A program made the position numbers and the translations under genes. Positions 37,958 to 58,109 of a stretch of 64,000 bases of DNA are shown here, one piece after another (positions within the stretch are counted from its first letter, which is position 1; each line of letters begins with the position of its first letter). Where the stretch lies: positions 2,232,001-2,296,000 of the forward strand of contig NZ_CP070968.1 in NCBI RefSeq assembly GCF_017086445.1. The letters run 5' to 3'. The DNA is from Brevundimonas fontaquae. GTDB taxonomy: Bacteria > Pseudomonadota > Alphaproteobacteria > Caulobacterales > Caulobacteraceae. A model generated the notes under the pieces. The model was not told the origin of the DNA. It searched no databases and saw only the letters and a program-made list of their open reading frames with translations.

Positions 37958-38033
<76 letters not shown>

Positions 38034-38082
38034 TCGTCCCCCTTGTTTTTGCTAGAGAAAATCCCCCACCATTGGGAAGCGA

Positions 38083-38397
38083 CTATGTGCGCTCAGCCTT
38101 AGTTGGGAAAAAAGTTGGAAAGCCCGCTCTCGCTTCGAGCTTCTTGATCGCAGACACAGCGAGCGAATGATCGCGCTTGAGATAGTGGCCATCGAGGATC
38201 GCACCGACGTCTCGCAGGCTAGCCTTCCACTGATCATACGCACTTAGGGCGGGCTCTACGGTCACCCCGCCCTTTGAGATGCGGATCACGCCGTCAGGCA
38301 TTATCTCGACGCTGGTCGCGTCGAACCCCGCTTCATTGGCCCCTTTCAGGGCGCGCGCCACATCCGCCTTTGTGAATCTTGTTGAAGCCCTTGGCAT
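38083..38397 (-). CDS. Hypothetical protein, 104 aa, mobile-element type
   Basis: Small protein beginning MPRASTRFTKADVARALKG, a helix-rich N-terminus that I associate from memory with short proteins beside tyrosine integrases in alphaproteobacterial elements; this is a family impression, not a verified match. No full-length integrase follows between here and the tRNA, only 49 nt. It is 9 nt downstream of the next gene on the same strand, so the two form an operon. A role as an excision or DNA-binding factor is possible but not shown. Confidence 0.6.
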   Translation of the reverse strand: MPRASTRFTKADVARALKGANEAGFDATSVEIMPDGVIRISKGGVTVEPALSAYDQWKASLRDVGAILDGHYLKRDHSLAVSAIKKLEARAGFPTFFPTKAERT

Positions 38398-38406
38398 TAT
38401 CGCCCC

Positions 38407-38961
38407 CTACTCAACGATCGTGATCATGCGGCTGCGCGCGCCGAACAGGGTCGCGAGCTCTTCGAGCCGATCATCAGCAATCAGGGCCTGCTCCGCCCGC
38501 AGATAGACGAGCTGGACACAGAGATTGAGATTGATGGTTATGAGACCATCGAGCCAGCGATCCTGCCCGAGGGCTTCCTGGATGCTTTGCAGCTCGCTCG
38601 CGATGTCACTCGCTGATCCAACCAACGGAAACTGGTCGTCGGCGACAAGCGTCGTCTCTGCGATGCCGAAAGAGGTCACCACGCCGAGATAGATGGGATC
38701 GGTAGACTTGCGGTCGTTCTCGCTCGCGCGCTCGATGGCCACGTCGAAATAGAGATCGACCCACGCACGCGCGTTATTCTTTTTAACGCCACATCGCGCC
38801 AATGCGACCGCCGCCTCAAAGGCGATGGCGTCCTCAACCGTGAAATTCTGCCACCCCGAACCAGGAGACCGCCCACGCATCGGGACATGTTTACGGGCCT
38901 TGAGAAGATTGAAGGCCTCCTCGCTCAACCCCACCAACTTCACTAGCTGCGATCTGCGCAT
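38407..38961 (-). CDS. Hypothetical protein with MerR-like N-terminus, 184 aa
   Basis: The N-terminal 60 residues (QLVKLVGLSEEAFNLLKARK, then GWQNFTVEDAIAFEAA) look like a MerR-type helix-turn-helix that chooses its DNA site. The rest is helical with no domain I recognise. A good promoter (TTGATA-N17-TACCTT) precedes it. It is divergent from the nitrilase-like gene and could control it through the shared 180-nt region, which contains a GATATAACAATATC near-palindrome. Confidence 0.6.
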   Translation of the reverse strand: MRRSQLVKLVGLSEEAFNLLKARKHVPMRGRSPGSGWQNFTVEDAIAFEAAVALARCGVKKNNARAWVDLYFDVAIERASENDRKSTDPIYLGVVTSFGIAETTLVADDQFPLVGSASDIASELQSIQEALGQDRWLDGLITINLNLCVQLVYLRAEQALIADDRLEELATLFGARSRMITIVE

Positions 38962-38986
38962 GCCTTGCTTCTCCGTTTAAGGACGA

Positions 38987-39015
38987 AAGGTATCATGCTG
39001 ATATAACAATATCAA
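38987..39015 (-). promoter_or_regulatory. Sigma-70-type promoter of the MerR-like gene
   Basis: On the minus strand TTGATA and TACCTT are separated by 17 nt. The AT-rich near-palindrome GATATAACAATATC (39000-39013) overlaps it and could be an operator. Confidence 0.6.
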
Positions 39016-39079
39016 TCGGATATTTTTTGAACGCGGCCGGCTCAGCTCGGCGCTTTTTACATTCCTTTTCAATACGTTA

Positions 39080-39108
39080 TTGACATTCCAGCAAATCTAT
39101 GGTATCAT
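39080..39108 (+). promoter_or_regulatory. Near-consensus promoter of the nitrilase-like gene
   Basis: TTGACA (39080-39085) and TATCAT (39103-39108) with 17-nt spacing. It overlaps an upstream in-frame ATG at 39099, so that codon cannot be the start of the transcript's protein; ATG 39141 is the logical start. Confidence 0.8.
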
Positions 39109-39140
39109 GGATTGTTAGCCAAACACATCGAGATCAGTCC

Positions 39141-40145
39141 ATGCTCAGCGAAATGCGCGGCTCACGGCCGGCGCGGATCGTGAGCATTCACGTCAAAGGC
39201 TCCCCCGCCACACGCCCCCGATCGACCGAGCTTCGCCTCGACTTTATGGTCACAATCATGCGCGCCATTCGGCGCCGGGGGTGGCGCGCCCTCGACGCCA
39301 TCGTCTTCCCCGCTGGCTACCTTCGAACGGCAGACTGGCTCGCTCCGGCTCCAACCACACTCAGACGCGCGATGATCGACGCATCTGTCGGCGACATCTG
39401 CGTCCAGGCCGTTCGTAAGCTCAGTGAAGGGTCGCCCGGGTGCGTCATCGTGACAGGGATCGACACCAACCGGTTCCGCCCGTGGGGGTTTCGAGGAGAC
39501 CAGGCTCTAGCGGCATTCAATCAGGATGGCTGTCTCGCGGTCGTCCGAAAAATCTTCCCGACAGATGGCGATACCAATGAATATGGTCGTGCCCCGTATC
39601 TCTTGGACCATGAGGATGCTCTCACCGAAGATCGTTTTCTGCCGCTCCCCAACGGCGACATCGCGATGCTGTGCCTCTGCTACGACAGCTTCGTCTTCTC
39701 CGAACTTGCGCTAGGCCCAACGACCAAGCTGCGAGCCATGCGATACAAGACGGCCGTTCCAGATGGATGGGACGACCTGACGCCAACGGAATCGTGGCTC
39801 TGGCTTTCAGACCTTTACCACCGAATTCGCACTCATTGGCCCCGCGTGCTCCTCAACCCTATCCACGGGTTCGACGCCCCCGGTCGGGAAGTCCTTTGGC
39901 ATCGTCACGGGCTCGCATGCGCCAGCAGCTTCCTCGGCGGCGGCTTAGCAATCGGGGCAGCGCATTATCAAAGAACGCTACCAACCGAGGGCTTCGCCAT
40001 GCTGGCGGCTACACGGGCGCCGCCGGAGCAACTCGGGCTCGCGAACTTTCGAACGGCCTACACGCATGCCCCGACAGATAGCTTCAGCGTTCGGGGCAGC
40101 GGCCGTCGCCCGATGAACGCATTTATTCAGCTCCACGAGGGCTGA
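39141..40145 (+). CDS. Divergent nitrilase-superfamily-like protein, 334 aa
   Basis: The order of motifs follows the carbon-nitrogen hydrolase (nitrilase) fold: a strand LDAIVFPAGY where the family has the catalytic Glu (FPE), then VIVTGIDTN, then AVVRKIFP with Lys137 in the position of the catalytic Lys, then MLCLCYDSFVFSELA with Cys180 in the catalytic ICYDxxF position, then RVLLNPIHGF. Lys and Cys are present, but the Glu is replaced (FPAG, 56-59). It could therefore be a pseudoenzyme or use another acid. The gene has its own promoter and terminator. This assignment is by eye from motifs and remains tentative; the substrate is unknown. Confidence 0.5.
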   Translation: MLSEMRGSRPARIVSIHVKGSPATRPRSTELRLDFMVTIMRAIRRRGWRALDAIVFPAGYLRTADWLAPAPTTLRRAMIDASVGDICVQAVRKLSEGSPGCVIVTGIDTNRFRPWGFRGDQALAAFNQDGCLAVVRKIFPTDGDTNEYGRAPYLLDHEDALTEDRFLPLPNGDIAMLCLCYDSFVFSELALGPTTKLRAMRYKTAVPDGWDDLTPTESWLWLSDLYHRIRTHWPRVLLNPIHGFDAPGREVLWHRHGLACASSFLGGGLAIGAAHYQRTLPTEGFAMLAATRAPPEQLGLANFRTAYTHAPTDSFSVRGSGRRPMNAFIQLHEG

Positions 40146-40166
40146 CTTCGACAGCTCTTACCACCC

Positions 40167-40198
40167 TGCCCCCGCGCCCCAAGCGCGGGGGCATTTTT
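40167..40198 (+). terminator. Rho-independent terminator of the nitrilase-like gene
   Basis: Perfect 10-bp stem TGCCCCCGCG/CGCGGGGGCA with a 7-nt loop, followed by TTTTT. It separates the nitrilase-like gene from the recombinase gene only 21 nt downstream. Confidence 0.9.
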
Positions 40199-40219
40199 GC
40201 ATGCCCAGAAAGGAACTTC

Positions 40220-40795
40220 ATGGCCGGCAGACAAGCAAAGATCCTCACCAGCGGCGAGCTTCGGCGACTGCTCGCACACACTCGGCGCTCCCCGACCCCA
40301 GAGCGAGATCGCGTCATCGTGCTACTCTCGGTCCGCGCCGGGTTGAGAGCCTGCGAGATCGCGGGGTTGGACTGGTCCATGGTCACGGACGCTAGAGGTC
40401 AAGTGTCGAACATCATCGAGCTTAGAGACGCGATCGCTAAGAAGGGATCCGGCCGTCGCATTCCCATCCATCCAGAACTCAGTCAGGCCCTGGTCAAGCT
40501 GGCCCCAAAGGCACTACGCATAGGGCCGGTCGTGCGCTCGCTAAGAGGCGGAGGGATGCGCGCAAACAGTATCGTCAACTGGTTCAGCTGCGCATTTCAC
40601 GCCATTGGCGCGGACGGCTGTTCGTCGCACTCTGGACGGCGCACGTTCGTAACCGCCGCAGCAAAAGCAGCGCACCGCGCCGGCGCAAGCCTCAGGGATG
40701 TCCAACTTTTAGCCGGGCATCAGTCGATCGAGACGACGCAACGCTACATCGATGGCGATAGTCGCGCGCAACATCGATTGGTGCACACGCTGTGA
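40220..40795 (+). CDS. Tyrosine recombinase, catalytic domain only
   Basis: 191-aa phage-integrase-family protein with the complete catalytic set: Arg in RAGLRACEIAGLDW, Lys in AKKGSGRRIP, HxxR in SHSGRRTFVT, the second His in LAGHQS and the Tyr in TTQRYIDG. The N-terminal core-binding (SAM-like) domain of XerC/D or phage integrases is absent, so this is a minimal recombinase. Its GAAAGGAACTTC leader gives a Shine-Dalgarno sequence. The stop overlaps the next gene as GTGA. It may act in element integration or in multimer resolution. Confidence 0.85.
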   Translation: MAGRQAKILTSGELRRLLAHTRRSPTPERDRVIVLLSVRAGLRACEIAGLDWSMVTDARGQVSNIIELRDAIAKKGSGRRIPIHPELSQALVKLAPKALRIGPVVRSLRGGGMRANSIVNWFSCAFHAIGADGCSSHSGRRTFVTAAAKAAHRAGASLRDVQLLAGHQSIETTQRYIDGDSRAQHRLVHTL

Positions 40796-41010
40796 CCCGC
40801 TCGCTTTCTGAGCTGATCGACCCAGTCACGATCGCCATCCATTCCATCGCGTTAGACCCCCAACTAGAAATTGCGGGTATCGATCTCGATGGTGGCCATT
40901 CGGTGCGAGTGACAATTGAAACCACTGCGTTGGCTGATTTTCCGCGTCAGCTTTCCCAATCGAACGGGCTTGTGCTCGTTCTCACGCTGATGGCGCTGGA
41001 TCGAATCTAG
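40792..41010 (+). CDS. Hypothetical protein, 72 aa
   Basis: Starts at GTG 40792 and overlaps the recombinase stop by 4 nt (GTGA), a sign of translational coupling. The product has an amphipathic beginning (SLSELIDPVTIAIHSIALD), then a beta-like stretch, and a hydrophobic end LVLVLTLMALD. No domain recognised. The coupling suggests a job together with the recombinase. Confidence 0.55.
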   Translation: MTRSLSELIDPVTIAIHSIALDPQLEIAGIDLDGGHSVRVTIETTALADFPRQLSQSNGLVLVLTLMALDRI

Positions 41011-41039
41011 CGTCTTCGCCGCAAAAGGCATTTCCTAAA

Positions 41040-41372
41040 ATGACAGACGAAAAGACTGCGCGCATTCGCGAGCTGAACGATCAACTGCGCGCGTCCGGCC
41101 AAGGCGGGCTGATTCTTGTAACGCGAGGGCTGTTGGAATTCGGTTTTCCCTTCGCCGCTCAGGTTCGCGCTGCGATCGCGCGAGAAACCAACTTTCCCGC
41201 TGGTAACGACCCTTATAACGAGCACGATTTCGGCGCGATCGATATCGAGGGCAACCGTGTCCTCTGGAAAATCGATTATTACGATCTGGATCGTCGATAT
41301 GCCTCTGACGATCCGTCAGATCCAAACATCACCCAGCGCGTCATGACCATTATGCTGGCTGATGAGTACTAA
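41040..41372 (+). CDS. DUF3768 protein
   Basis: 110-aa protein of the DUF3768 type, which is common on alphaproteobacterial plasmids and integrative elements. Recognisable blocks are RIRELNDQLRASG, NDPYNEHDFGAI, LWKIDYYD and the end RVMTIMLADEY. No catalytic function is known. Its presence supports a mobile origin of this region. Confidence 0.85.
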   Translation: MTDEKTARIRELNDQLRASGQGGLILVTRGLLEFGFPFAAQVRAAIARETNFPAGNDPYNEHDFGAIDIEGNRVLWKIDYYDLDRRYASDDPSDPNITQRVMTIMLADEY

Positions 41373-41486
41373 GCGCCCCTCAGACCCATCTAGATGTGTT
41401 CCTGATCCATCTAAACGGCTTTTAGATCGGTCAACTGGGCCCAATTCTCGTTTTTCCCCAAAAGCTGTTGTGGGGATTATGTGGTC

Positions 41487-41771
41487 CTATTCGGCGCTTT
41501 TTGGTTCACCGACACGCGTCGCGACCATTGGGATCTTGGAAAGCTCACCAAGACCTACAAGCAGCCGGCCCGCGTCAATGTTTAGGGCGTCAGCCAACTT
41601 CAGAAACTGAATAACGTTGAGACGGACCCGTTCGGATTCAAATTTTCCGATCCAGGAGTGATCGACGCCCAGCCGCTCGGCCAACTGGCGCTGGCTTAAA
41701 CCGGCAGCAATTCTGGCCTCCACAAGCCGCCTGACGAGCTCTCGGTGAGGCTCGGAAAAAGCGACGTTCAT
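41487..41771 (-). CDS. XRE-family transcriptional regulator
   Basis: 94-aa protein with a classic Cro/CI helix-turn-helix: LVEARIAAGLSQRQLAERLG then VDHSWIGKFESERVRL. Short length without an effector domain suggests a phage- or plasmid-type repressor. It is divergent from the lipoprotein gene, and a perfect 15-bp inverted repeat lies between them, 40 nt upstream of its start, a likely operator. Confidence 0.88.
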   Translation of the reverse strand: MNVAFSEPHRELVRRLVEARIAAGLSQRQLAERLGVDHSWIGKFESERVRLNVIQFLKLADALNIDAGRLLVGLGELSKIPMVATRVGEPKSAE

Positions 41772-41810
41772 CGGGGGAAGAACTCAACCATCCCCTTCTC
41801 GCTAGACCCC

Positions 41811-41845
41811 GCCCAGGTTGCTGCTAAAAGAGCAGCAACCTGGGC
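41811..41845. repeat. Perfect 15-bp inverted repeat between divergent genes (candidate operator)
   Basis: GCCCAGGTTGCTGCT and AGCAGCAACCTGGGC are exact reverse complements around AAAAG. It sits between the XRE gene and the lipoprotein gene, where a terminator is not expected. A related 10-bp inverted repeat, AATGTTGCTT/AAGCAACATT, occurs at 43955-43975; both share GTTGCT and AGCAAC half-sites. Confidence 0.75.
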
Positions 41846-41865
41846 GACCTTTGATAGGATTTCAC

Positions 41866-43101
41866 ATGACCCGGCTTCCGCCGGCGGCCCTATTGGCTGC
41901 CATTCCCCTTTCGGCCTGCATCCCGCAATCGCCGGAGCAGGTCTGCGCATCGCCCCAAGTTCACCAGGATGTCATTTCTGTCCTGATCGCCAATCTCGGT
42001 GACTATCGTCTTCTTCTTGGAGATGGCGTTGACGCCGCTATCGCCCGGCGCTCTGACATCGCAGAGATCATCGCAGACGAGATCCAGTTCGCAGATATCG
42101 CCGTCGAAGGGCGAGATCCGCAGATCAAACGTGTCAGCTGTTCAACCACTGTCTCCCCTGCTTCAGGCGATGGTCAGAGCTATCGGTTGGAGTTCACGCG
42201 CCAGAAGGAAGCTGGAGGCCGCGAGTATCTCTATACCACATCGATTTCGGATGGATCTGGTAGCCGGCAAAAGCGCCTTAGACGAGCCGGGGAAGCGACG
42301 GATGCGGCGCAGCCCGCCGATGATCAAGGCAGGATATCCGATCCCTACTCCAGCGACCAAACGCTCTTCGAGCGCGGAGGTTTGAAGTTGGTCAGCAACA
42401 ATGAGGAGAACGACGTCTTCTGCATTGGATGCGAAGGGTCGCGAAGCCGTCGCGCACTGCGGTTGGGGCTCGTTTATTTCACGCAGGCCTGGGGTGACTT
42501 TGTGTTGTTGACCCAAAATACCGGCAATGCCGCAGGCGGAGGGACGACCTATGCGGTCAACCTCAAGACGATGAAGATTAACGATCTCCAAACAAACTCA
42601 GGCGCCGGCCCCACGTTTGAGTTCGAGCGATCTGACGGGGGAGTGATAATCGAGGTTTCCCAAAGCGGTCGAAAGCGAAGGCTTGTCCTGGTCCCGGCTA
42701 CGGCTAGCCCTCAAAGGCCCGAGACAGACCCCGCCCCATCTGAGAGATCCTCACCTCGCTCTGAAGACGCAATCCCTTCGCTAAATCACGACGTCTCAAG
42801 ACCGAGCGCGTCGCAGCCCCCAACCTTCACGCCTGCATCCTGGATTTCCCAGCCAAAGCCTACCATGCCTCAACGCGCGATAGATGCAGGCGTAACTGGC
42901 GCGGCGCTACTGCAGTGCACAGTTACAACCAACGGTCGTCTGGCCGATTGCGGGGCGCTCTGGGAAAGCCCACCGCGATATGGATTAGGTCCCGCAGCCG
43001 TCGCAGGAGCGTTATCATCCGGGAGACTGCGACCTGCCATGTCGGGCAATGATCCCGTGCCTTCAACCATCCGTTTCCATGTGACGTTTGCGGCTCAATG
43101 A
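41866..43101 (+). CDS. Lipoprotein with TonB-C-like C-terminal domain
   Basis: 411-aa predicted lipoprotein. Start ATG 41866 gives MTRLPPAALLAAIPLSAC with lipobox LSAC (Cys18); an upstream start would place the inverted repeat inside the gene. The middle part (about 20-310) is not recognised but has a Pro/Ser-rich linker around 310-330. The last 85 residues follow the TonB C-terminal pattern: PTMPQRAIDAGVTG, VTTNGRLADCG, then LGPAAVAGAL, and STIRFHVTF. TonB-C domains usually sit in energy-transducing proteins; here there is no transmembrane TonB segment, so the domain may bind another envelope protein. Coupled by ATGA to the following gene. Confidence 0.65.
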   Translation: MTRLPPAALLAAIPLSACIPQSPEQVCASPQVHQDVISVLIANLGDYRLLLGDGVDAAIARRSDIAEIIADEIQFADIAVEGRDPQIKRVSCSTTVSPASGDGQSYRLEFTRQKEAGGREYLYTTSISDGSGSRQKRLRRAGEATDAAQPADDQGRISDPYSSDQTLFERGGLKLVSNNEENDVFCIGCEGSRSRRALRLGLVYFTQAWGDFVLLTQNTGNAAGGGTTYAVNLKTMKINDLQTNSGAGPTFEFERSDGGVIIEVSQSGRKRRLVLVPATASPQRPETDPAPSERSSPRSEDAIPSLNHDVSRPSASQPPTFTPASWISQPKPTMPQRAIDAGVTGAALLQCTVTTNGRLADCGALWESPPRYGLGPAAVAGALSSGRLRPAMSGNDPVPSTIRFHVTFAAQ

Positions 43102-43496
43102 CCATGATCATTACAACACTGGCTTCGGCCCTGATTGCGGCTTCCTTTGCCCCGACCGAAATGGCTTCCCAGGCAGTCGCTGGATCTAAGAGTCGTCCAA
43201 GCTCGATCTCTGAGCATCTTCTTTCAGAGTATCGTTCGGTCTGTAACGGCACCAATCCGCGAGGCGGACTTAATCGTATCAATGACCAAGATGAAGACCG
43301 CGACGTCCGAAAACGGTTCGGCTGGACACTAGTGCGAATGGCTGTGTCTTTGGAACGCGGGCCTGAGCACGTTATTCTGACAAAAGAGGATCGAGAGTGC
43401 TTTGTCACGCTGATCGAGCGTTTACATCAGGAGGATATGCTCGACGGTTTAGCGGAGCAACTTGACCAAGACCGGCTTGACAACGAGCAACACTAA
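43098..43496 (+). CDS. Secreted hypothetical protein, 132 aa
   Basis: Begins MTMIITTLASALIAASFA, a signal peptide-like segment, with the ATG overlapping the upstream stop (ATGA). The mature part is hydrophilic and helical (VRKRFGWTLVRMAVSLERG, then ECFVTLIERLHQEDMLDGL). No domain recognised. As it is coupled to a lipoprotein, the two probably work together in the periplasm. Confidence 0.6.
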   Translation: MTMIITTLASALIAASFAPTEMASQAVAGSKSRPSSISEHLLSEYRSVCNGTNPRGGLNRINDQDEDRDVRKRFGWTLVRMAVSLERGPEHVILTKEDRECFVTLIERLHQEDMLDGLAEQLDQDRLDNEQH

Positions 43497-43986
43497 TCCC
43501 CCCCATGCCTGATATCATTCCATTCATTCAGGACTGTGATCCAACAGCTTCCCCTCCCTTTGATTGTTCGCGATCAACATGCGTTTGGGACGTACGACGA
43601 GGAAAACAGCCTGGAGATGACCTCAGGGTAGAATAGGGAAATCGCCTCAGGGCGAGCAAGGGTCAGGCGGTCGAGATTACGTCGGCTTACTCGATACATT
43701 TGCCCCGCGCCAAGATGCCTCACCAGTCTGTATGGGCCGAGGTAGGGTGAGCGGCGGATGGATTAGGTTTGGCGACCACGCAACACGCTTCTCAGGATGC
43801 GAAGCGCATCGCGAAAACTCCGACAGGTTGATGTGAGTGGCAACGGTGGTCACCCAATCGAATCTCAGCGTCGCTTTAGGGCGAACTGCCGGACCGACAG
43901 CGCGCAGTAACCCAAGCACAGTGTGATCTGGACAACGCCGGCTTGTCGCGCGATAATGTTGCTTTAAGCAACATTCCAGGTGATGA
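43497..43986. other. Intergenic region with a palindrome, no gene seen
   Basis: About 490 bases without a supported gene. The right end holds the palindrome AATGTTGCTT-T-AAGCAACATT (43955-43975), 11 nt before the next ATG, where a repressor would overlap the ribosome-binding region. Open frames on the minus strand here lack a Shine-Dalgarno site and resemblance to any family. Confidence 0.45.
43955..43975. promoter_or_regulatory. Palindrome upstream of the basic-protein gene (candidate operator)
   Basis: Perfect 10-bp arms AATGTTGCTT/AAGCAACATT around one base, 11 nt upstream of the start at 43987. It shares half-sites with the XRE-associated inverted repeat at 41811-41845. Confidence 0.5.
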
Positions 43987-44892
43987 ATGCCCCCTAAAAG
44001 CACGCTTCGGAAGCGACAGCGAAACCAAGCGGTTCGTATCGGCGCAGCCAGACGAGAGAAGATAGAGAAGGCTTGTACACGTCCCGACATTACGCCAGAC
44101 GACGCCAAGCGGCTACTCGCCGACGCGGACCCTGCTGATTTTCAACAGTGGTTGGAACAGGTAGCCGAGCTTACTACCAGCCGCCTCGCCCTCCAGGAAC
44201 GCCGCAAGAAGAGCCTTCAGCTCGCCCTCGCCTATCAAGCCCTCCTCCGCCTCGATAGCTTCACAACCGAAGAGCGCGTGACGGTCGTAGAAAGTTTGAT
44301 GCGGCAACTCGAAGCGCTCGATCGAGCAGGGCCTCCGGATAGGCGGGGCGGTAAAGTCAAAAACGCCGACCCGACGACGGTGATCCTAAAAAGCCTTGCC
44401 CTTTATCGAGTCGACGATCCCAGCCATCGAGCGACGCTGAGCAAAGACAAAGCTTTGCTAATTTTCGCCAAGCGTCAGTCAATACCATCTGCTGAGTTCG
44501 AGTCGGCCATCCCTCGACTGCGGAAGGAAATGTCCGCCGCAAAAAGCACGAGGGCTAAGCACGAAACGTCAGCGCCCGCAGCATCGACCCTCAACAGCGC
44601 GGCTTCACACTCTGCGCCGTTCATCAACGGAGCCGCCGCGAAGGCAATATCCAATTCGGCGACTACCGCTGGAGGGCGCACCACGAGAGTTCGCGGACTC
44701 AAAAAGCTGAAGCATCCAGGGGTCTACCTCGCCATCATTGAGGTCGATCCCGACGGAGACGTAGGAATCCGGACACCGTCACGCGCTTTCGGCGAAACCA
44801 ACCGAATGAAGATGATGAAAAAATCAGACGTAAAAGAGGTGATGAGTGATGCAACCACGGTTCTCACTGACTTCGTGAATAGGAGATCATAA
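43987..44892 (+). CDS. Basic hypothetical protein upstream of the HUH gene, 301 aa
   Basis: Begins with a very basic segment (MPPKSTLRKRQRNQAVRIGA) then mostly helical sequence with charged clusters (ALQERRKKSLQLALAYQALL). A low-complexity Ala/Ser region (around 180-225) leads to a small C-terminal domain with VRGLKKLKHPGVYLAIIEVD. No family recognised. The stop overlaps the HUH start (TAATG), so it is translationally coupled to a replication-type endonuclease and might be its DNA-binding partner. Confidence 0.6.
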   Translation: MPPKSTLRKRQRNQAVRIGAARREKIEKACTRPDITPDDAKRLLADADPADFQQWLEQVAELTTSRLALQERRKKSLQLALAYQALLRLDSFTTEERVTVVESLMRQLEALDRAGPPDRRGGKVKNADPTTVILKSLALYRVDDPSHRATLSKDKALLIFAKRQSIPSAEFESAIPRLRKEMSAAKSTRAKHETSAPAASTLNSAASHSAPFINGAAAKAISNSATTAGGRTTRVRGLKKLKHPGVYLAIIEVDPDGDVGIRTPSRAFGETNRMKMMKKSDVKEVMSDATTVLTDFVNRRS

Positions 44893-45305
44893 TGCGTCGA
44901 CAATACGAGGCCTGGCTGACGGAATTCGACCCTGATCTGTTCATGACACTCGGCGCGAATAGACCCGTCTCAAAAGAAATGATGGATCGGACCGCACGTG
45001 AATTTTTTAATCGCGTGCATAGAAAGGGCCTCGGGCCACGCTGGTCAAAAAGGCCAGATTGCGACCGAGGACACGCCATCGGATTTCTCGAACATCCGCT
45101 GACGAATACCCACTTGCACTTAGCTGTCAGGGCCCCGGACCCGATCCAGGACATCATCGTCAACGGCGGCGAGATTTGGAAAGGAATTTTATCGGGCGGC
45201 CACTTCTACGCCGGTCGAGCCGAAAATCCGGAAGCCATCGCGCGCTACGTAACCAAGGATTTCTGGAAGCTTGGTCCGGATGCAGCAGTCTTTCTCTACG
45301 CGTAA
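44892..45305 (+). CDS. Small HUH-type endonuclease (Rep/relaxase-like)
   Basis: 137-aa protein with the three motifs of HUH single-strand nucleases in order: FMTLGANRPV (about 17-26) as motif 1, NTHLHLAV (His74-Leu-His76) as the metal-binding HUH motif, and ARYVTKDF with Tyr119 and Lys122 in the catalytic YxxK motif. The family nicks ssDNA through a Tyr-DNA bond in rolling-circle replication, conjugation or transposition. It is smaller than most Rep proteins and lacks a helicase domain. AGGAGATCATAATG gives a good start, coupled to the upstream gene. Confidence 0.75.
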   Translation: MRRQYEAWLTEFDPDLFMTLGANRPVSKEMMDRTAREFFNRVHRKGLGPRWSKRPDCDRGHAIGFLEHPLTNTHLHLAVRAPDPIQDIIVNGGEIWKGILSGGHFYAGRAENPEAIARYVTKDFWKLGPDAAVFLYA

Positions 45306-46681
45306 AATCGCGAAAATAAGCAAACTGTAATTTGATGGTGAGCGAACTATGACGACCCGGGGCGAAGCGAGGCTCCCCCGGCGAGTAAGGACCTCTCCCC
45401 GACAGGGTGGCGCATCGCCAGAAATTTGTCTGATTGAGGATCAAGGGCTTCAAAAGCTTCTTGAGCGAGTTAAGACTTTCATCTCCACGGTGCACATTTC
45501 GAGAGCTTGTGCTCCAGCACCAACATCTAGAACTTAGCCAGTCGCACAAGAAGAAGTGTTACCCCGGAGGGGGCATACGTCTAACAATATGGCTGATTAG
45601 GCCCCCAGCAAAATGGGCTGAGCGATCGAACTGAGTCGTCGACCATCGGGAACTGGGTTGCCGCTCGTAACCACCAGGCCAACCAGACCAGATTTAGATC
45701 CATGGAATGGGACGCGTAGGTCCGAGGGAAGAACTGACGCGACTCAGTCGGATCGGCCATATCATAGGGCTGATTGCAAGGTACGACGGTCGAAACCGGT
45801 GTCGCTTTAGGTCGCGTGATGACAGGCCAGCACGATCGAAATCGGCAGAGAAATAGGCACTGCACGTCGCCATGAAGCGGCTTGACGTGTCTCTGTTTGT
45901 CTAGCCCCTGACAATCTTTGCACGACGCGACGCAGCAGGTTCGAAGAGGTCATAAACGTCGCGCCCTTAGCCGGAAACGGCCAAACCTGTTTCCAGAACC
46001 GGGGACGGTGGATTGAGCACATTGTGGGTATGTCTGAATCTTCGAGGCGGGCTTTATCTATATCCCCAGGAACGTTGAGATCGATGGCCAGGGAATTTTC
46101 AGCATCGATGAACACACGCTGATGTGAATGCAAGCGGCTGATAAAAATGCAGCCCGCACAGCCTTGAAGAAGGCATACTCGCTGCCTGCTCATCTGACTT
46201 GAATCCACACCTCATCAAGCGGACTCTTGTTCGAACATCGATCAAACCAAAACGGCATGCAATCGACTGGACCATCTAATGCACTTGATCGCGCAAAGCT
46301 TCATTGATGATGCGGCGTGAGACTTTCATTGACCGCGACGAAAAAGGCCAAGCATCAAATTGGAAGCTGAAAGCCTTCCAAATTGCCGGGCCCCTGCAAC
46401 AATAGTCCCACTTTCGTTTTCAGACCGCGTGGTCATAGCGTGTACTCGACGTAATTTCGGACGTCTAACGCTAAGCTGCATCCAAGACATCCAATTCAAG
46501 CCCGCCCCTCAGGACCGAGACCCGTCAACTTACACACCACTACGTCTAAATCACCAAAGCACTTTTGAACTGTAAATATTATATAATCGGCTTTGTTATT
46601 GATCGATAGAGTTGATTAAAACGCGCCTCATGGGCGCTAATTTTACAATTGCTTCAAACGACCTTCAAAGGAAACCAACGC
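45306..46681. other. Gene-poor stretch with hairpins, no supported gene
   Basis: About 1.38 kb of lower-GC DNA. The open frames (for instance 133 codons on the minus strand at 45807-46208) have no Shine-Dalgarno sequence and no family resemblance. Near the HUH gene, CCGGGG...CCCCGG (45357-45381) forms a hairpin with an inner AGC/GCT stem, a possible nick-site context. Near 46350-46385 AATTGGAAG...CTTCCAAAT forms another imperfect hairpin. A TATAAT lies at 46582-46587, the likely -10 of the next gene. Confidence 0.5.
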
Positions 46682-47089
46682 ATGACAAAATCAACGCGAG
46701 AGAGTGCAAGCCGCGGTGCTGAAAAGTTAACGCCGGGACTAAAGTTCCGACCCCCTACCCCTCTTTTCGAGGCTCGGACCTATTGCGGCTCGGAGCACCA
46801 CTTGAGAGGTTTTGAGATAAACAAACGTGGATCCGCAAATGACAAAGAAATAGATAAAACCCAGAGGAAGCAAATTTACAAATTGATAGACCAGCTTCAT
46901 GATGAAGGGATATCGGCAAGCAGCATCGTCATCGCGTTGCTAGATTGCGCGGTTGATCTTACCGCTGCGTATCTTCCAAACGAAGGCAAGGCGTATACGC
47001 CGTTTGTGGAGGCTACCGCCCACCTTTTCAATCATTACGCTGCAGTCGGGGTGTCTGACATTGACACACCATGGGATTTGTACGGATGA
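46682..47089 (+). CDS. Hypothetical low-GC protein, 135 aa
   Basis: Start ATG 46682 is preceded by AAAGGAAACC. The first 50 residues are basic and probably flexible; the last 85 form a helical domain (RKQIYKLIDQLHDEGISASS, then ALLDCAVDLTAAYL). No domain recognised. It has its own TATAAT-containing promoter region and a strong terminator, so it looks like a complete monocistronic gene. Codon use and GC differ from neighbours, in keeping with recent transfer. Confidence 0.6.
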   Translation: MTKSTRESASRGAEKLTPGLKFRPPTPLFEARTYCGSEHHLRGFEINKRGSANDKEIDKTQRKQIYKLIDQLHDEGISASSIVIALLDCAVDLTAAYLPNEGKAYTPFVEATAHLFNHYAAVGVSDIDTPWDLYG

Positions 47090-47134
47090 AATCCTATGCC
47101 TGAAGGCAACAGAATGCTTTTGTGAACGTGGTAT

Positions 47135-47166
47135 AGACGGGGCTTAAACTGGTAAGCCCCGTCTTT
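47135..47166 (+). terminator. Rho-independent terminator at the element's right side
   Basis: Perfect 12-bp stem AGACGGGGCTTA/TAAGCCCCGTCT with loop AACTGG, followed by a short T-run, 46 nt after the stop of the low-GC gene. Confidence 0.85.
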
Positions 47167-48330
47167 AGCATTTGACACCAATCCCACTCTATTCGGTCCA
47201 TCAAAGGCGCCTACGACCCTATATTGCTATACGATACGAAAGTGCGACTCATATCGGACATCGGGCTGGTGTGACTTCGACCACACCTGGAATGTTCACA
47301 GCGCCTGCCCCGGCGCGTAAAACGGGCCGATGCGGTTGGATTTTTCCCCGCATCAGTGGGTTTGTCTGGATCTACACTTAGACAGGCCTGCGCCGGCTTT
47401 GCGCCAGGAACGACCGTTTTTATTCACCCAGAAAGGCGAGCTTCGAGTGCTCGACCAAGCAACGAAAATCGGATCTGTGCGTCCCGCGCGGCGGCGATGC
47501 TGGGTCATTTGTAGACTATCGCCAGACCGTAGATTCGGAGATCCGCGCCCCTTGCCATCTCAACAACTCGCGTTACGTTAAAGGCATCCGGGAGGGAATA
47601 ACCGGGCAGGCCCGTTCCGAACCTTCAGTGGCTCAGGGGCGGGCCGAACTTGGTTTTGACCGCTGCGGCGAGTCTGTTTCGACAAAATTACAGGCCCTCC
47701 CCCCCTACCAACGCCGGCTGACATGACCATGCGTTAAGGCTAAGCTGGCGCGTCGCGGCTCATGCCCGAACTGCGTCAGGCGGCCTGGCTGGGCGAGGAC
47801 ATCATCGGCCAGGCCGCATTACCGCCCTTGAGGGCTGCGATGGATGGAGTGGCACTGGATCGGAACGCAATGCGGGTCCACCAGATGTTCGCTGCCAGCC
47901 TCGCCGATGGGCAGCAGTCGCTGGCGGGTTGTTCTTTCCCGGGACGACATATCCGGGCAGATCGCAAACACAGCTCCCGTCAGCAGTCATGAAAAGGAGC
48001 GTGGCGCTTTCGAATTCCTTGGCGGCTTGCTGGGCAAGCCCGCTTCGCCTGCGACGGCGCCCGGGAGAGGGTGAATGGTTGGCCGCAGGCGGCGGTTTCC
48101 GTGTCGGCCGAGGGACGCGGTCAGGTGGGGCGGTCGGCCGGCCTCGTCGTTCACTGGAAGCGGACTCGTCGGAAGTTGCGCAGAACCGTGTCGGACGCGG
48201 CCCGCTGGTGCTCGCGGCGGTCGAGACCTGCGCCTGCGTCCGCCTACCCGCCTGCCCTGCGAACAGGAACCAATAGAGCCGCCTGCCCTTTTTGCTGGGC
48301 GCGCTAGGCGCATCATCAGGAGTTTGCACC
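47167..48330. other. Gene-poor region, no supported gene
   Basis: About 1.16 kb with a gradual return to high GC. Several frames exist (for example 47762-47992 plus strand, 47802-48380 minus strand), but they have no Shine-Dalgarno site, no domain and overlapping alternatives, so I leave them out. The transition in composition between about 47500 and 47750 may mark the true junction of the inserted DNA. Confidence 0.45.
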
Positions 48331-48834
48331 ATGGCCGAGAAAACCCTCGACACCCTGTTCCACGACACGCTTAAGGACATTTATTATGCCGAAAGGAAGA
48401 TCCTGAAGTCTCTGCCGAAGATGGCCCGGGCCGCGCAGTCCCCCAAGCTAAAGGCCGCCTTCGAAAAGCACAAGGATCAAACCGAAGGCCAGATCGAACG
48501 CCTGCAGCAGGTGTTCGAGATCATCGGCAAGGCTCCCCGCGGCAAGACCTGCGACGCAATCGAAGGCATCCTTGCCGAGGGGGACGAGATCATGGAGGAG
48601 TACAAGGACACAGCTGCGCTCGACGCAGGCCTGCTGGCCGCGGCCCAGGCCGTGGAACACTATGAAATCACGCGCTACGGCACGCTTAAGCGCTGGGCGC
48701 TGGTGCTGGGTCTTGAGGACGCCGCTGCCCTGCTAGACGAGACGCTCGAGGAGGAGTCCCAGACCGACGAAGACCTCACCACGATCGCTGATGCTGCAGT
48801 CAACGCCGAAGCGATGCAACGCAAAGGCGCGTAG
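48331..48834 (+). CDS. DUF892/YciF-type ferritin-like stress protein
   Basis: 167-aa four-helix protein of the YciE/YciF (DUF892) family. MAEKTLDTLFHDTLKDIYYAE is the conserved opening, and the metal-binding Glu and His residues of a ferritin-like site are in IYYAE, HKDQTEGQIERL, AQAVEHYEITRYGTL and LEEESQTDEDL. Start 48331 has CAGGAG 9 nt upstream. Proteins of this family are induced by osmotic and stationary-phase stress. It is followed by a perfect 10-bp hairpin. Confidence 0.9.
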   Translation: MAEKTLDTLFHDTLKDIYYAERKILKSLPKMARAAQSPKLKAAFEKHKDQTEGQIERLQQVFEIIGKAPRGKTCDAIEGILAEGDEIMEEYKDTAALDAGLLAAAQAVEHYEITRYGTLKRWALVLGLEDAAALLDETLEEESQTDEDLTTIADAAVNAEAMQRKGA

Positions 48835-48851
48835 AGCCTCGAACCCCAACG

Positions 48852-48874
48852 GCCCCGTCGCCCAGCGACGGGGC
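48852..48874 (+). terminator. Hairpin after the ferritin-like gene
   Basis: GCCCCGTCGC and GCGACGGGGC pair perfectly around CCA, starting 18 nt after the stop; no U-tract follows, so termination may need help. Confidence 0.55.
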
Positions 48875-48941
48875 GTCAACCGGCCGCCGCAACTGACGCT
48901 TTAACAATGGCTGGCAGGGGCGGCGGATCCGATGCAGTGAC

Positions 48942-49878
48942 TCAAGCCCCGGGCGCCGGTTCCAGTGGCGTCCGCTCTTCGTCGGGAGAGACCTTCGCGA
49001 GGCCTGGCCTGTTTATCGTAACCTGATGAGGATAGGGGAAGCTCAACCCATGCGCCTCCAGGGTCTCCTTGATCGCCTTGGTCAGGTCGAACCGCGCATC
49101 GACATAGTCATCGGAGCTTGCCCAGCAGCGCAGGGTCACATTGACGGCGTTGTCCCCCAAACTGGTGACCTTGGCCCAGGGCGGCGGATCGTTCAGGACG
49201 CTTTGATTTGCCTGGGCGCACTCGATCAGGAGCCGCAAGGCCGTGTTCAGATCGTCGTCGTCATCGACGCCGAAGACGAGTTCGATGCGTCGATGGCCGG
49301 ACTGGCTCATGTTGACGATCATCTCGCCGAACACCTTGCCGTTGGGCAGGTAGAGGGTCAGTCCGTCGAAATCGACGACCGTCGTGTTGAAAAGGTCGAG
49401 ATCGACCACCTTCCTGTCGCCCGTTGAGCTCGACCTTGTCGCCGACCCGATAGGGTCTCAACAGGACAATCATCTCCCCGGGGGCGACGTTGCCCAGTGT
49501 GCCCTGGAGCGCCAGCCCGATCGCTAGGGACGCCGCCCCCAGGACGGCGAGGACCGACGTGGCCTGGACGCCGATCTGCTGCAGGACCGCAATTAACCCG
49601 ATCGCGATGACGAGATAACGGACCAGGGCGGACACGAAGTCAGCCAGGGTCTCGTCAGCGGTGTGGTGGTGGGGCAGTCGGTCGACAGCTCTGTGCACTA
49701 GACGGGCCAGACGCTTTGATGCCCATAGCGTCACCGCCAGGATGAGGAGAGCGACGAGGAGGCGAACGGAATAGACGCCGACGACGCCGGCCAGTTCACG
49801 CGCCATGGGCGCGTCACCGGAAAAGGCGCTTTGCACGGTCCCCACGAGCCCCGGGTCGCCGGCAGCGACTGTCGTCAT
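48942..49878 (-). pseudogene. MscS-family mechanosensitive channel with a single-base frameshift
   Basis: Two adjacent minus-strand frames together make one MscS-like channel. The first (from ATG 49878) encodes the membrane helices, including the pore helix ASLAIGLALQGTLGNVAPGE, up to RVGDKVELNG. The cytoplasmic beta domain (VVDLDLFNTTVVDFDGLTLY, LPNG) continues in the next frame to 48942. The switch happens near 49405-49420, where deleting one G of CAGGAAGG would restore a continuous protein of about 310 aa. Either a sequencing error or a true inactivating mutation would explain it. Confidence 0.8.
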
Positions 49879-50030
49879 GCAAGGCTCCCTAGGTTGCCCA
49901 CCGGTCAAGCCTGACGAAGGTTCTCGACGGCGGATCAGGGCTGTGTCCCGGACGCGACGGAACTTGCGGCGAGCTCACAGGTTTTACCGAATGGAACACC
50001 CCGCGAAGGCGCCGGGTTTGAGAGGGCTCT

Positions 50031-51332
50031 ATGCAAACGACAGACTACGATTTCATCAGCTGGAACGCGCTCGTTTATGAGTGGGCGCCCAAGGCGATCG
50101 GCGCCGTCCTGATCCTCTTCGTGGCCTGGTTCATCGGCAAGGCGGTCAAGTGGGCCCTGGCCAAGGTAATCAACCGCATTCCCGGCGCCGCGAAGGCTAC
50201 GGCGAGCGACAATCCCAAACACTCCATCGGCGCCAGCCTCGGCGATGTGGCCTTCTGGCTGATCCTGCTCTTCGGCGTTGTCGCCGCCCTCGGCGTCCTC
50301 AATCTGGGCCAGGTCGTCACCCCTCTCAACTCGATGCTGAATCAAGTCGCCTCGTTCGTTCCGAGCGTTCTCGGCGCGGTGCTCATCTTCTTCATCGGCT
50401 TCGTGGTCGCAACCTTGGCCAAGCGCGTCGTTGAGGCGGCGCTGCAAGCCGCCAATGCCGACCGCTGGCTTGAGAAGTCTGGATTGACTAAGGCGACCGG
50501 ATCGACGGGCGTAAGCTCGGCGATCGGCACCCTCGTTTTCGTCCTAATCCTCATCCCGATCACCATTGCCGCCCTCGAGCAGTTGGGCATCGAATCCCTG
50601 ACCATCCCGGCGGTCGCCGTTCTCTCGACCGTCCTCGCAGCCATTCCTCACGTGCTCGCCGCCGCGATCGTTCTGGCCGTCGGCTGGTTCATCGGCCGCT
50701 GGGTCGCTCAGCTGATCGAGCGCGTCCTCCCTGCGACCGGGTTCGACCGCAGCATCTCGAGTCTGACCTCGCTGACAGCTTCGACTTCAACACCCGCGGC
50801 GCCGAATCCGGCCACGGCTCCCTATGCCGGTGACGTCACTCCTGCGACTGCGCGGGCTCTTGGCGGCGAGGGGTCGAATCCGATGACCCCATCCGGCATC
50901 GTCGGCAAGATCGCCATGGTCGCCATTGTCGCCTTCACGGCGGTGGAGGCGGCCAAGCTGCTGCAGTTCGGCACAATCGCCGTCACCCTCCAGGAAATCT
51001 TGGCGCTTGCCGGCCATGTCATCGTCGGCGGGATCATCATCACCGCCGGCGTGCTGATCGGGGGCGTTCTGGCAAACCTGATTAACAAGGGCACGGGCGG
51101 CGCGGACGGGTTCGCCTCCACCTTGGTGCGCTGGGCGACGATCGCTCTGGCTACCGCCATGGGCCTGCGGTTCATGGGGATCGCAGACGACATCGTGCTT
51201 GTGGCGTTTGGCCTGATCCTGGGGGCCGCCGCTGTCGCCGCGGCTCTTGCCTTCGGGCTTGGTGGACGGGAAGCTGCGGGCAAGGTGGCCCAGATGTGGG
51301 CGGACAAGGTCACCAAGACGCCACTCCAATAA
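50031..51332 (+). CDS. CmpX-like mechanosensitive channel family membrane protein
   Basis: 433-aa inner-membrane protein with repeated two-helix units typical of the TM-helix repeat/CmpX family: VLILFVAWFIGKAVKWALAK near the start, VLGAVLIFFIGFVVATLAKR, AAAIVLAVGWFIGRWVAQL and GIIITAGVLIGGVLANLI. It lacks the MscS beta domain. A Thr/Ala/Pro-rich loop (around 245-280) separates the second and third units. Members affect cytoplasmic-membrane stress and c-di-GMP in Pseudomonas. It is divergent from the broken MscS gene. Confidence 0.82.
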   Translation: MQTTDYDFISWNALVYEWAPKAIGAVLILFVAWFIGKAVKWALAKVINRIPGAAKATASDNPKHSIGASLGDVAFWLILLFGVVAALGVLNLGQVVTPLNSMLNQVASFVPSVLGAVLIFFIGFVVATLAKRVVEAALQAANADRWLEKSGLTKATGSTGVSSAIGTLVFVLILIPITIAALEQLGIESLTIPAVAVLSTVLAAIPHVLAAAIVLAVGWFIGRWVAQLIERVLPATGFDRSISSLTSLTASTSTPAAPNPATAPYAGDVTPATARALGGEGSNPMTPSGIVGKIAMVAIVAFTAVEAAKLLQFGTIAVTLQEILALAGHVIVGGIIITAGVLIGGVLANLINKGTGGADGFASTLVRWATIALATAMGLRFMGIADDIVLVAFGLILGAAAVAAALAFGLGGREAAGKVAQMWADKVTKTPLQ

Positions 51333-51427
51333 CATTCCGTGTTATCGCCTACAGCGGGGCGGGCGCCAGCCGGCGTCCCGCCCCCCTGCCCCACCCTCGG
51401 CGTCTTTTGGGAGGAAAGTCGTCCCTG

Positions 51428-51778
51428 GTGTCCAGCCTGACGTGTAGAGACCTTGAGCGCGCAGCGCTTGATCTTCTTCAACATCTCAGCCTGAGCAGCG
51501 CAGGCTCTCCTGGAGGCGACCGGGATTGTGTTCTCGTTTTTGCCCGGTCTTTGAATGGCAGCCAGCTGGATGCCTCGATCCGCTATTTCGGACAGGCAGG
51601 CTCACCGGCAACATCGCTTGCGACCGAAATTCTGACCGAAGTTCTAATTGAGCGGCTGGCCCTCGACGGAATCGAGGCTGCAACAGGCGCGCCGAGAGCC
51701 GAACTAACAGACAACCGCGCCGGGTCGCCGGGCAGGCCGCTTGCTAGCTCCGCGGGAGCGACGCGATCAGATTTGTGA
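51428..51778 (+). CDS. Hypothetical protein, 116 aa (uncertain)
   Basis: Frame from GTG 51428 to TGA 51778. The middle part LDLLQHLSLSSAGSPGGDRD and TEILTEVLIERLALDG gives a mixed helical and beta profile, but no domain is recognised and the Shine-Dalgarno site is weak. Its end overlaps the start of a receiver-domain remnant on the other strand. It could be a chance frame in GC-rich DNA. Confidence 0.3.
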   Translation: MSSLTCRDLERAALDLLQHLSLSSAGSPGGDRDCVLVFARSLNGSQLDASIRYFGQAGSPATSLATEILTEVLIERLALDGIEAATGAPRAELTDNRAGSPGRPLASSAGATRSDL

Positions 51779-51821
51779 TCATATCAAGATGGTAAGGCTT
51801 GGCGATGAATTGGCCATCGTC
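51744..51821 (-). pseudogene. Response-regulator receiver domain, 3' remnant
   Basis: The last about 25 codons on the minus strand read DIPDDGQFIAKPYHLDMITN and then LIASLPRS, which match the end of a CheY-like receiver (conserved Lys-Pro in FIAKP, then the last helix). No phospho-acceptor part is present upstream; the sequence before it is unrelated. It is a decayed fragment left by a rearrangement. Confidence 0.55.
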
Positions 51822-51896
51822 GGGGATGTCGGCGGGGGCCGTCGCCGAGCCGACACAGGAACGAGTAGAGGCACGCGCCGTTGGCCTGCCATCCCT

Positions 51897-52145
51897 ATGT
51901 ACGAACTTCGCTATCGCTACGGCGCCTCCTCCGAACCGGCGATCGAGCACGCCGACCTGAACGACGACGGACAGGCGGCGGTACGCGCCGTGCGAGAGTT
52001 GTTGGGAATGCCGAGCCGTCACGCAGTTGAGGTCCGGCGCGAGGGGGTCCTTATATTCTGCCGGACTCGAACCCGCCTCGTCCAGGAGACGACGGATTCC
52101 GTCTCAAGTGCAAAGTCACGCAATCGGCGGGAACCGACGCAATAG
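51897..52145 (+). CDS. Hypothetical protein, 82 aa (uncertain)
   Basis: From ATG 51897 the product begins MYELRYRYGASSEPAIEHAD and contains a plausible alpha/beta pattern with RAVRELLGMPSRHAVEVRRE then VLIFCRTR. No signal peptide and no family recognised. There is no strong ribosome-binding site; kept because the first 60 residues look protein-like. Confidence 0.4.
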   Translation: MYELRYRYGASSEPAIEHADLNDDGQAAVRAVRELLGMPSRHAVEVRREGVLIFCRTRTRLVQETTDSVSSAKSRNRREPTQ

Positions 52146-52331
52146 TCCAGGGGCCAGTGAGTTGAGCTAAACCTTGCCGAGCCGCTTTATCGCGGCGACA
52201 ACAGGCCGCTCTCCTTCGCAATAGTCGTCCCAGGCGGAGAGTTTCTTAACCAGGCCCGGGACCGTGCGAACGGGGTGCTAGCGACGGGGACGTCGCGGCG
52301 CCCCACAACGCAGGCGTCGTCCCCGTCGCCG

Positions 52332-52442
52332 TCGGATCTGGCGGCTGAGGTGGCCCGGTTGCGGCGGGAGAACGGTCAGCTTCGGATGGAGGGGGACATC
52401 CTAAAAAAAGCCGCGCTCATCTTCGGAGCGACCTCCCGATGA
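52332..52442 (+). pseudogene. IS3 OrfA, C-terminal remnant
   Basis: Encodes the Leu-zipper end of OrfA: EVARLRRENGQLRMEGDILK followed by KAALIFGATSR and TGA at 52440-52442. The helix-turn-helix half is missing or unrecognisable upstream. The stop overlaps the OrfB ATG at 52439, and the A7 run allows a -1 shift into an open OrfB frame. Confidence 0.75.
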
Positions 52443-53299: not shown

Positions 53300-53327
53300 C
53301 CCCGTCCACTTTGCGGGGGAAGATCAA

Positions 53328-53719
53328 ACATCTGAAGGCGCGCCTTGAGATGCGTCTGGCTGACTTCGCCACCTTGCGGATCATCAAGCACCAAGGCCGC
53401 GGCGACCAGCTTCCAAGGCACAGCCACCGTATTAAGGCTTTGAAGTTCAAAGCTCCGAAATCATGCTGAGCAAAGACTTCTGCGTCGGTTTGAGGCCCCT
53501 CGTCGCGCGAGGCTCACCCGGTCAAAACCGTGAGGCACAGAGCGAGGGTGAGGTGGGCTCTCATGGACTTTCACCCTGGCTGAGGAGCAGGCCGACCGCC
53601 ATCCCAAAAACTGCTCGCCGTATGTCGACGAATGCCAGTCCCCTCTCAATCGGGCTCCTGCGCTTCTTCGTATTTGGTCTAGCCTGGTGGCGGATGGGAG
53701 GTGCAACCGCTGCTCCCTC
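53328..53719. other. Intergenic region, no gene seen
   Basis: About 390 bases between the IS remnant and the XRE gene. Frames here are short, lack ribosome-binding sites and match no family I know. Probably decayed DNA next to the insertion. Confidence 0.45.
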
Positions 53720-54043: not shown

Positions 54044-54229
54044 GACCACGAATAGTCTCCAAATTCGGAGCCTCCGCAAGAGCCGATCTCCGTACGGCAA
54101 TGGCGCTTTGCACCGGCGGCACGACCTGTGATCGAAAGCCGCGTCGCCGCTCTCAGTGCCTTTTTCTACATCCACACTGAGAGGGATCTCTCGCGCGGAT
54201 TCCGCCCGCGATGGGGGATGATCAGCCGA

Positions 54230-57021: not shown

Positions 57022-57055
57022 GGGAATCCTTCGGCGAAGTTTGGAAAACAGGGAC

Positions 57056-58102: not shown

Positions 58103-58109
58103 CGGAACC

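What the first reader, a model, noticed from the sequence alone, without database searches (positions are those of the whole stretch)
38034..47166. Unusual integrated element at tRNA-Lys with a novel gene set
Directly after the tRNA-Lys 3' end the sequence changes in GC, codon use and gene content. The block joins a minimal tyrosine recombinase, a nitrilase-like protein, DUF3768, an XRE repressor with palindromes, a lipoprotein/secreted pair and an HUH endonuclease with a basic partner. I know no described element with this set. Seen: gene order, motifs, promoters, terminators. Inferred: integration at the tRNA and a shared history of these genes.
Basis: partly seen in the sequence, partly recalled or inferred. 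Interest (0 to 1): 0.8.

Follow-up and report, generated by a model that had tools for sequence, protein, structure and literature searches.

The report
Left end of tRNA-lysine genomic island
The block is the left end of an 89-kilobase piece of foreign DNA inserted at a lysine tRNA gene; its own integrase has been deleted, but it still carries a small DNA-nicking-type protein, a partner gene and a nearby DNA hairpin, an unusual kit for an inserted element.

Summary
The integration is real, but the block is one end of something larger. Two relatives with both island ends (G360, G482) and two empty sites (G028, G002) show an island from 38,034 to 126,769 (window scale), flanked by an exact 45-bp repeat of the tRNA-Lys 3' half; 47,166 is no border. 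The integrase is not the 191-aa recombinase: the true one is broken. ORF 38,083-38,397 fuses a small upstream ORF to the integrase C-terminus after a ~0.94-kb deletion; G482, near-identical there, has it intact. G482 in turn lost the HUH gene and partner, with an IS3-type insertion at the break. The module recurs at this tRNA in G017, G360, G031 (no HUH found) and G482, and partly at tRNA-Ser and tRNA-Gly. The HUH protein has the invariant residues of rolling-circle nickases. In three of three tRNA-Lys islands that keep HUH and partner, a hairpin with a TTTAA centre lies beside their start; M13 gene II protein, a possible distant relative, nicks TT/AA in a loop. I propose a rolling-circle initiation module (inferred, about 45%). 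A conserved dyad marks the xre-lipoprotein gap. New variant of a known kind.

The parts
37958..38033 (+). tRNA-Lys (CTT), the integration target
37989..38033 (+). left attachment repeat (45 bp from the anticodon loop to the 3' end); exact second copy at 126720-126764 on the window scale (outside the window)
38083..38397 (-). 104-aa fusion ORF: residues 1-59 = small ORF upstream of the integrase, 60-104 = integrase C-terminus; about 0.94 kb between them deleted (junction near 38220)
38407..38961 (-). 184-aa protein next to the integrase, taken for a helix-turn-helix regulator or excision factor by reading; conserved in the family, no library hit
39141..40145 (+). 334-aa nitrilase-fold protein; the listed start at 39099 is probably 14 codons too early; the catalytic Glu position is Ala or Gly
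40167..40193 (+). terminator-like stem-loop
40220..40795 (+). 191-aa minimal tyrosine recombinase (not the tRNA integrase)
40792..41010 (+). 72-aa ORF overlapping the recombinase stop
41040..41372 (+). DUF3768 protein
41487..41771 (-). XRE-family regulator
41810..41846 (.). perfect dyad with 16-nt arms; carries the family xre box TG[AC]TGCTAAA..GCA (probable operator)
41866..43101 (+). lipoprotein-like ORF with TonB_C domain
43098..43496 (+). 132-aa exported-looking ORF (by eye); only residues 1-70 match in G482
43955..43975 (+). 21-nt odd palindrome with TTTAA centre, just before the partner-HUH genes; candidate nick hairpin
43987..44892 (+). 301-aa basic partner protein, probable homologue of the HUH partners of G017, G360 and G241
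44892..45305 (+). 137-aa single-domain HUH protein (Rep-like)
46682..47089 (+). 135-aa ORF, 98.5% identical in G482
47171..64000 (.). island continues, and on to 126769 beyond the window

Best explanation
Shown by comparison: the block is the left end of an 88.7-kb genomic island inserted in the 3' half of tRNA-Lys(CTT). It was presumably put there by a phage-type tyrosine integrase encoded beside the tRNA; the repeat begins in the anticodon loop. In this genome a ~0.94-kb deletion has removed that integrase except for its last 45 residues, so the island can hardly excise by its own integrase. Inferred: the 184-aa protein and the small ORF guide integration and excision; XRE binds the dyad beside its gene and sets the module on or off; after excision the small HUH protein, with its basic partner, nicks the TTTAA hairpin beside their genes and starts rolling-circle copying of the circle, either to keep it or to hand it to another cell through a conjugation machine supplied in trans. 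The minimal recombinase-DUF3768 unit is an associated module whose job I cannot assign (dimer resolution is a guess).
Against: The hairpin is absent at the G241 HUH-partner pair and at the 8 other HUH loci scanned, and in G017 it seems to overlap the 5' end of the partner gene. The motif was chosen after seeing it. No Foldseek match in the PDB reached E 0.001, and unrelated ferredoxin-like folds score the same Z as most Reps. The window's own HUH protein hits no Pfam family. No PF03432 relaxase or PF03135 VirB4 hit lies in the G000 or G360 islands. G482 keeps its island and integrase without HUH or partner, and no HUH was found in G031, so these are not needed for residence. No activity was measured.
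Confidence: 0.8

Rival explanations
1. The TTTAA dyad is an operator, bound by the partner or another regulator of the divergent or operonic HUH-partner genes, and the HUH protein nicks elsewhere or not at all.
For: The dyads lie in promoter position; in own it overlaps the end of a promoter-like -35/-10 pair at 43929-43957 (such sites are at chance level), and half-site GTTGCT recurs at the xre dyad, 2 hits against 0.04 expected in the window (pattern chosen afterwards).
Against: In G017 and G360 the xre-side and HUH-side dyads show no common half-site; the centre stays TTTAA while the arms change.
Confidence: 0.35
2. The HUH-partner pair is inert cargo of an island that moves, or moved, by its integrase alone and is now decaying.
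For: G482 lost the pair and kept the island; G031 has the module but no HUH hit; G012 has integrase, HTH and recombinase without HUH in the 20 kb examined and is not among the hits; G000 lost its integrase.
Against: The pair keeps its place and its catalytic residues in three diverged tRNA-Lys islands and recurs in G241, a Caulobacter.
Confidence: 0.25
3. Phage satellite or degraded prophage using a filamentous-phage-type Rep.
For: Integrase, repressor and gene II-like Rep.
Against: Of ten proteins sent to PHROGs, besides integrase and regulator hits only one weak match to a family of unknown function; no phage record with the HUH protein; no capsid genes seen by eye in the island ORF list.
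Confidence: 0.04
4. One reading: a separate 9-kb element ending near 47,166.
For: GC rises again after 47.5 kb.
Against: No repeat of the tRNA end in the window other than at the tRNA, up to 3 mismatches; 98.8% identity to G482 crosses 47,166.
Confidence: 0.03

Closest known systems
Integrative and mobilizable elements with rolling-circle-type relaxases (PMC5357655: abstract and passages read)
   Same: Site-specific integrase plus a relaxase related to rolling-circle initiators; the abstract reports 118 of 144 streptococcal IMEs with one.
   Different: Those belong to Rep_2, Viral_Rep, PHA00330 or MobT families, often with a TcpA coupling protein, in streptococci. Here a 137-159-aa protein, weakly G2P-like, in Caulobacterales islands of 89 and 122 kb (the two with both ends and HUH); no coupling protein was searched for.
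IMESag-rpsI (PMC5090054: passages read)
   Same: Integrase, Cro/CI regulator, rolling-circle Rep, flanking att sites.
   Different: 9.5 kb, has its own MOBV relaxase and oriT; nicking and transfer tested in that paper.
ICEBs1 and Tn916 with Rep_trans/MobT (review PMC5714925: passages read)
   Same: Rep-like nickase that starts both replication and transfer of an excised element.
   Different: Conjugative elements; different nickase family.
M13 gene II protein (PMC11765958: passages read)
   Same: Rolling-circle nickase; possible relation through PF23343; nicks TT/AA in a hairpin loop.
   Different: Phage Rep with a larger recognition region; no integrase.
SIRV1 ORF119 Rep (PDB 2x3g; its role as a Rep is recalled)
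   Different: Archaeal rod-shaped virus; 15% identity.
[quoted passage not shown]
   Same: Integrative elements with more than one tyrosine recombinase.
   Different: SEs have no HUH gene and leave no empty site on the donor.

Membership tests
tRNA-integrated genomic island | Insertion abutting the tRNA 3' end, flanked by direct repeats | tested here: met
   45-bp exact repeat at 37989 and 126720
tRNA-integrated genomic island | Empty site in relatives | tested here: met
   G028 and G002 of 8 relatives assembled over 33-68 kb; G019 and G009 regain the core after other inserts; 4 not resolved; G028 junction read
tRNA-integrated genomic island | Cognate integrase beside the tRNA | tested here: met
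   Open full-length frame in G017, G031, G360 and G482; only a remnant in G000
HUH endonuclease | HxH metal motif and Y..K nucleophile motif | tested here: met
   Invariant in 11 of 11 aligned sequences
HUH endonuclease | Rep-like fold | tested here: inconclusive
HUH endonuclease | Strand nicking | not testable with these tools
   Needs protein
Pfam REP_ORF2-G2P | Score over the family's cut-off | tested here: inconclusive
   4 of 11 members match at E up to 1, best 3.7e-5; cut-off comparison not shown; window member no hit
Integrative and mobilizable element | Own relaxase acting at an oriT | tested here: inconclusive
   HUH and hairpin candidates only; no PF03432 in the island; other relaxase families not searched
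Integrative and conjugative element | T4SS genes in the element | tested here: inconclusive
   One marker only: PF03135 hits of G000 lie outside the island and G360 has none; none seen by eye; G017 has one about 9 kb from its second repeat, on another contig
Nitrilase superfamily (39141-40145) | Fold | tested here: met
Nitrilase superfamily (39141-40145) | Glu-Lys-Cys triad | tested here: not met
   Lys137 and Cys180 invariant; the FPE Glu (motif recalled) is Ala in 18 and Gly in 3 of the 21 rows that cover it
SE elements | No HUH gene; no empty site formed | tested here: not met
   HUH present; unoccupied sites in relatives

The most novel reading that the evidence does not exclude
A family of large Caulobacterales islands (89 and 122 kb where both ends and HUH are known) that, once excised, copy or transfer themselves from a minimal gene II-type origin: a 137-159-aa stand-alone HUH nickase, a basic partner and a TT/AA hairpin whose stem changes with the enzyme, gated by an XRE switch. 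It would be a new class of rolling-circle relaxase/replicase for integrative elements.
Probability: 0.3. Interest if true: 0.7.

Novelty: new variant of a known kind. Interest (0 to 1): 0.5.

Why it matters
Two near-identical islands have decayed in complementary ways (one lost the integrase, the other the HUH pair), which makes the role of each part testable in natural strains. Large elements such as the 89-kb R391 are already reported to copy themselves from their relaxase (review PMC5714925, passage); if the HUH-hairpin pair is an origin, a far smaller Rep-type protein would do this for islands, and gene II-type proteins should be looked for as unrecognised relaxases. The nitrilase-fold family without its catalytic Glu, and a DUF3768 unit for which one search of the paper library found no paper, are open protein questions.

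Tried and rejected
Separate 9-kb element: rejected. Minimal recombinase as tRNA integrase: rejected. Core-genome explanation: rejected. HUH protein on plasmids or phages: no match in those two collections; the protein search found 3. Defence label by PADLOC for the six block proteins sent: none (a weak LmuB hit is to 54230-55501). ncRNA at gathering score: only the tRNA. A genome-contig scan with the HUH alignment gave 3 loci, one weak; a viral-contig scan with the recombinase gave 11 loci, not followed up. PDB sequence search with the HUH alignment gave nothing that I take for a relative (best IceA2, E 0.0013). The six-frame island comparison by tblastx was noise, its output cut, and was replaced by blastn. 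Homology of window ORF 46682-47089 to the G017 121-aa protein: none. BLASTP between the window's partner and the others gives at best E 0.052 in a four-sequence set. DUF3768 in the paper library: 0 papers. The listings of paper searches showed no title or abstract start describing this island family. VIA rows for the HUH model include many unrelated ferredoxin-like folds at similar Z, so the fold match alone is weak.
Full report
WHAT IS THERE. The window is G000:C1:2232001-2296000 of a 3.30-Mb genome in one contig. tRNA-Lys(CTT) ends at 38033.

IT IS AN INSERTION, BUT NOT A 9-kb ONE. In 29 same-genus loci fetched by the permease-tRNA sequence, 27 lose DNA similarity to the window at 38037-38056; the other two (G017, G031) continue into related DNA. 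One of the 27, G035, has a remote integrase (29% identity) at the site. On a scale extended beyond the window with the genome's own DNA, the last 45 bp of the tRNA recur exactly at 126720-126764. G360 carries an island of 121.9 kb between its tRNA-Lys and the same core genes; its last 7,186 bp are 98.4% identical to own 119584-126769 and end at the repeat. G482 carries a 79.6-kb island with two exact repeats (8874, 88440); long stretches are shared with own, among them 46536-54183 (98.8%), 69106-93354 (99.7%) and 122167-126769 (99.0%). G028 has the core straight after the tRNA, G002 within about 155 bases. So the island of the window is 38034-126769; own 126770 to about 135980 is a second, presumably older insertion with a decayed repeat. 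In a pattern search of 19 genomes (up to 3 mismatches) 11 match at all and 4 hold a second copy of the repeat (G000, G016, G017, G019); G482 was not in that search.

THE INTEGRASE IS BROKEN. ORF 38083-38397 is a fusion. Residues 1-59 match the small ORF before the integrase (in G017 and G360 residues 1-42), and the part from 60 on matches the integrase C-terminus, in G017, G031 and G360, and at 98% in G482, whose integrase is intact. About 0.94 kb is missing at 38220/38221. The remnant keeps the Tyr-containing tail but not the upstream catalytic residues (roles recalled; alignment). G000 has no other good match to this integrase (next: 28%, E 2.6e-5). Seven of 131 genus genomes hold a match at E 1e-60 or better: G360, G017, G031 and G482 at tRNA-Lys(CTT), G014 (one stop in the frame) beside tRNA-Lys(TTT), G426 (one stop) and G251 (both 45-47% identical) beside tRNA-Arg. 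G000 is not among them, since only the remnant is left.

A RECURRENT MODULE. Order: integrase, small ORF, HTH-like protein (leftward); recombinase, 72-aa ORF, DUF3768 (rightward); XRE (leftward); lipoprotein; HUH with partner. It is found at tRNA-Lys in G017, G360, G031 up to xre and the start of a lipoprotein, where the contig ends, and G482 without HUH and partner. G031 has no HUH hit anywhere in its 80-contig assembly. G012 has integrase, HTH and recombinase-DUF3768 beside a tRNA-Ser, without HUH in the 20 kb examined. G241 has integrase, an HTH-like ORF (by eye) and a nitrilase N-terminus on one contig beside tRNA-Gly, and the recombinase C-terminal part, DUF3768, partner and HUH on another; that these join is inferred. 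A C39-like protein follows DUF3768 in G017, G360, G031, G012, G104 and G029 (name by eye), where the window has none. In the order, the recombinase (E 1e-30) is in 8 of 398 genomes, HUH (E 0.001) in 11 of 398 and the nitrilase-like protein in 2 of 398. In the genus, HUH is in 12 of 131. Beside HUH, the partner was recognised in G000, G017, G360 and G241 and not in the 8 loci, which reach at most about 1.5 kb on either side; the partner was not searched for genome-wide.

G482 LOST THE HUH PAIR. Own 43307-46535 is replaced in G482 by 1,266 bp encoding an IS3-type transposase (recognised by eye) with inverted ends. Since G017 and G360 keep HUH in this place, loss in G482 is the simpler reading.

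TWO DYADS. (a) xre-lipoprotein gap: own GTTGCTGCTAAAAGAGCAGCAAC, G017 GATGATGCTAAACTAGCATCAAA, G360 AATGATGCTAAACTGGCATCACA, and G031, not used to see the pattern, AATGATGCTAAACAGGCATCTTA; G482 has the own form. The box occurs once in the 143 kb of own and once in the 180 kb of G360. (b) HUH or partner start: own GTTGCTTTAAGCAAC, G017 GTCCGTTTAACGGAC, G360 GTCTGTTTAACAGAC. Perfect GTNNNTTTAANNNAC dyads occur 3 times in 266,791 bases of 12 HUH loci, all three there. Perfect dyads with arms of 7 or more and this centre occur 4 times in 363 kb, 3 of them there, about 0.0044 per 400 bp, and not in the four stretches, which include the HUH-less left end of G482. As single strands they fold better than shuffles (z -2.7, -4.9, -5.1). 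Against: chosen after the fact, absent at the G241 and 8 other HUH loci, and overlapping the partner's 5' end in G017. M13 gene II protein is reported to nick TT/AA in the loop (PMC11765958, passages), hence the nick-site proposal.

THE NITRILASE-LIKE PROTEIN. 23 relatives, 22 of them aligned with the window's (P0004, 99% identical, left out); model pLDDT 91.3; clear nitrilase fold. Lys137 and Cys180 are invariant; the Glu position is Ala or Gly. It may be a pseudo-enzyme or use another base.

MOBILITY. PF03135 and PF03432 hits of G000 and G360 lie outside their islands; G017 has a VirB4-like gene about 9 kb from its second repeat on another contig. The right end has two RepB-like proteins and a serine recombinase. 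I did not scan the whole island with Pfam.

VERDICT. A real, recurrent tRNA-Lys island family. The window copy has lost its integrase. Novel parts: the small HUH-partner-hairpin module (function inferred) and the pair of complementary decayed islands.

Noticed in passing
126770 to about 135980 on the window scale (L057, L058): Second, presumably older insertion behind the island, with a decayed tRNA-like repeat at its right end and an RND-type pump cluster (by eye).
   Followed up: partly
L057:14420-17747: Two RepB-like partition proteins and a serine recombinase next to the right repeat, inside DNA 98-99% identical at the right ends of the G360 and G482 islands.
   Followed up: partly
L055:1798-12080: Type II secretion-like gene cluster inside the island (by eye).
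   Followed up: no
G360 right repeat (L122): Right att copy differs at 8 positions, with paired changes in the T arm, so the incoming element may have carried another tRNA-Lys variant.
   Followed up: no
L090 and L091 (G060): Two distant HUH genes with identical listed scores and the same translation, about 19 kb apart in one genome.
   Followed up: no
G241:C83 about 34557-40073 (in L120): The G241 contig carrying recombinase, DUF3768 and HUH also has an 1838-aa ORF with a sacsin-like start (by eye), a possible defence gene.
   Followed up: no
window 52439-53191: IS3-type transposase ORF (by eye) inside the island.
   Followed up: no
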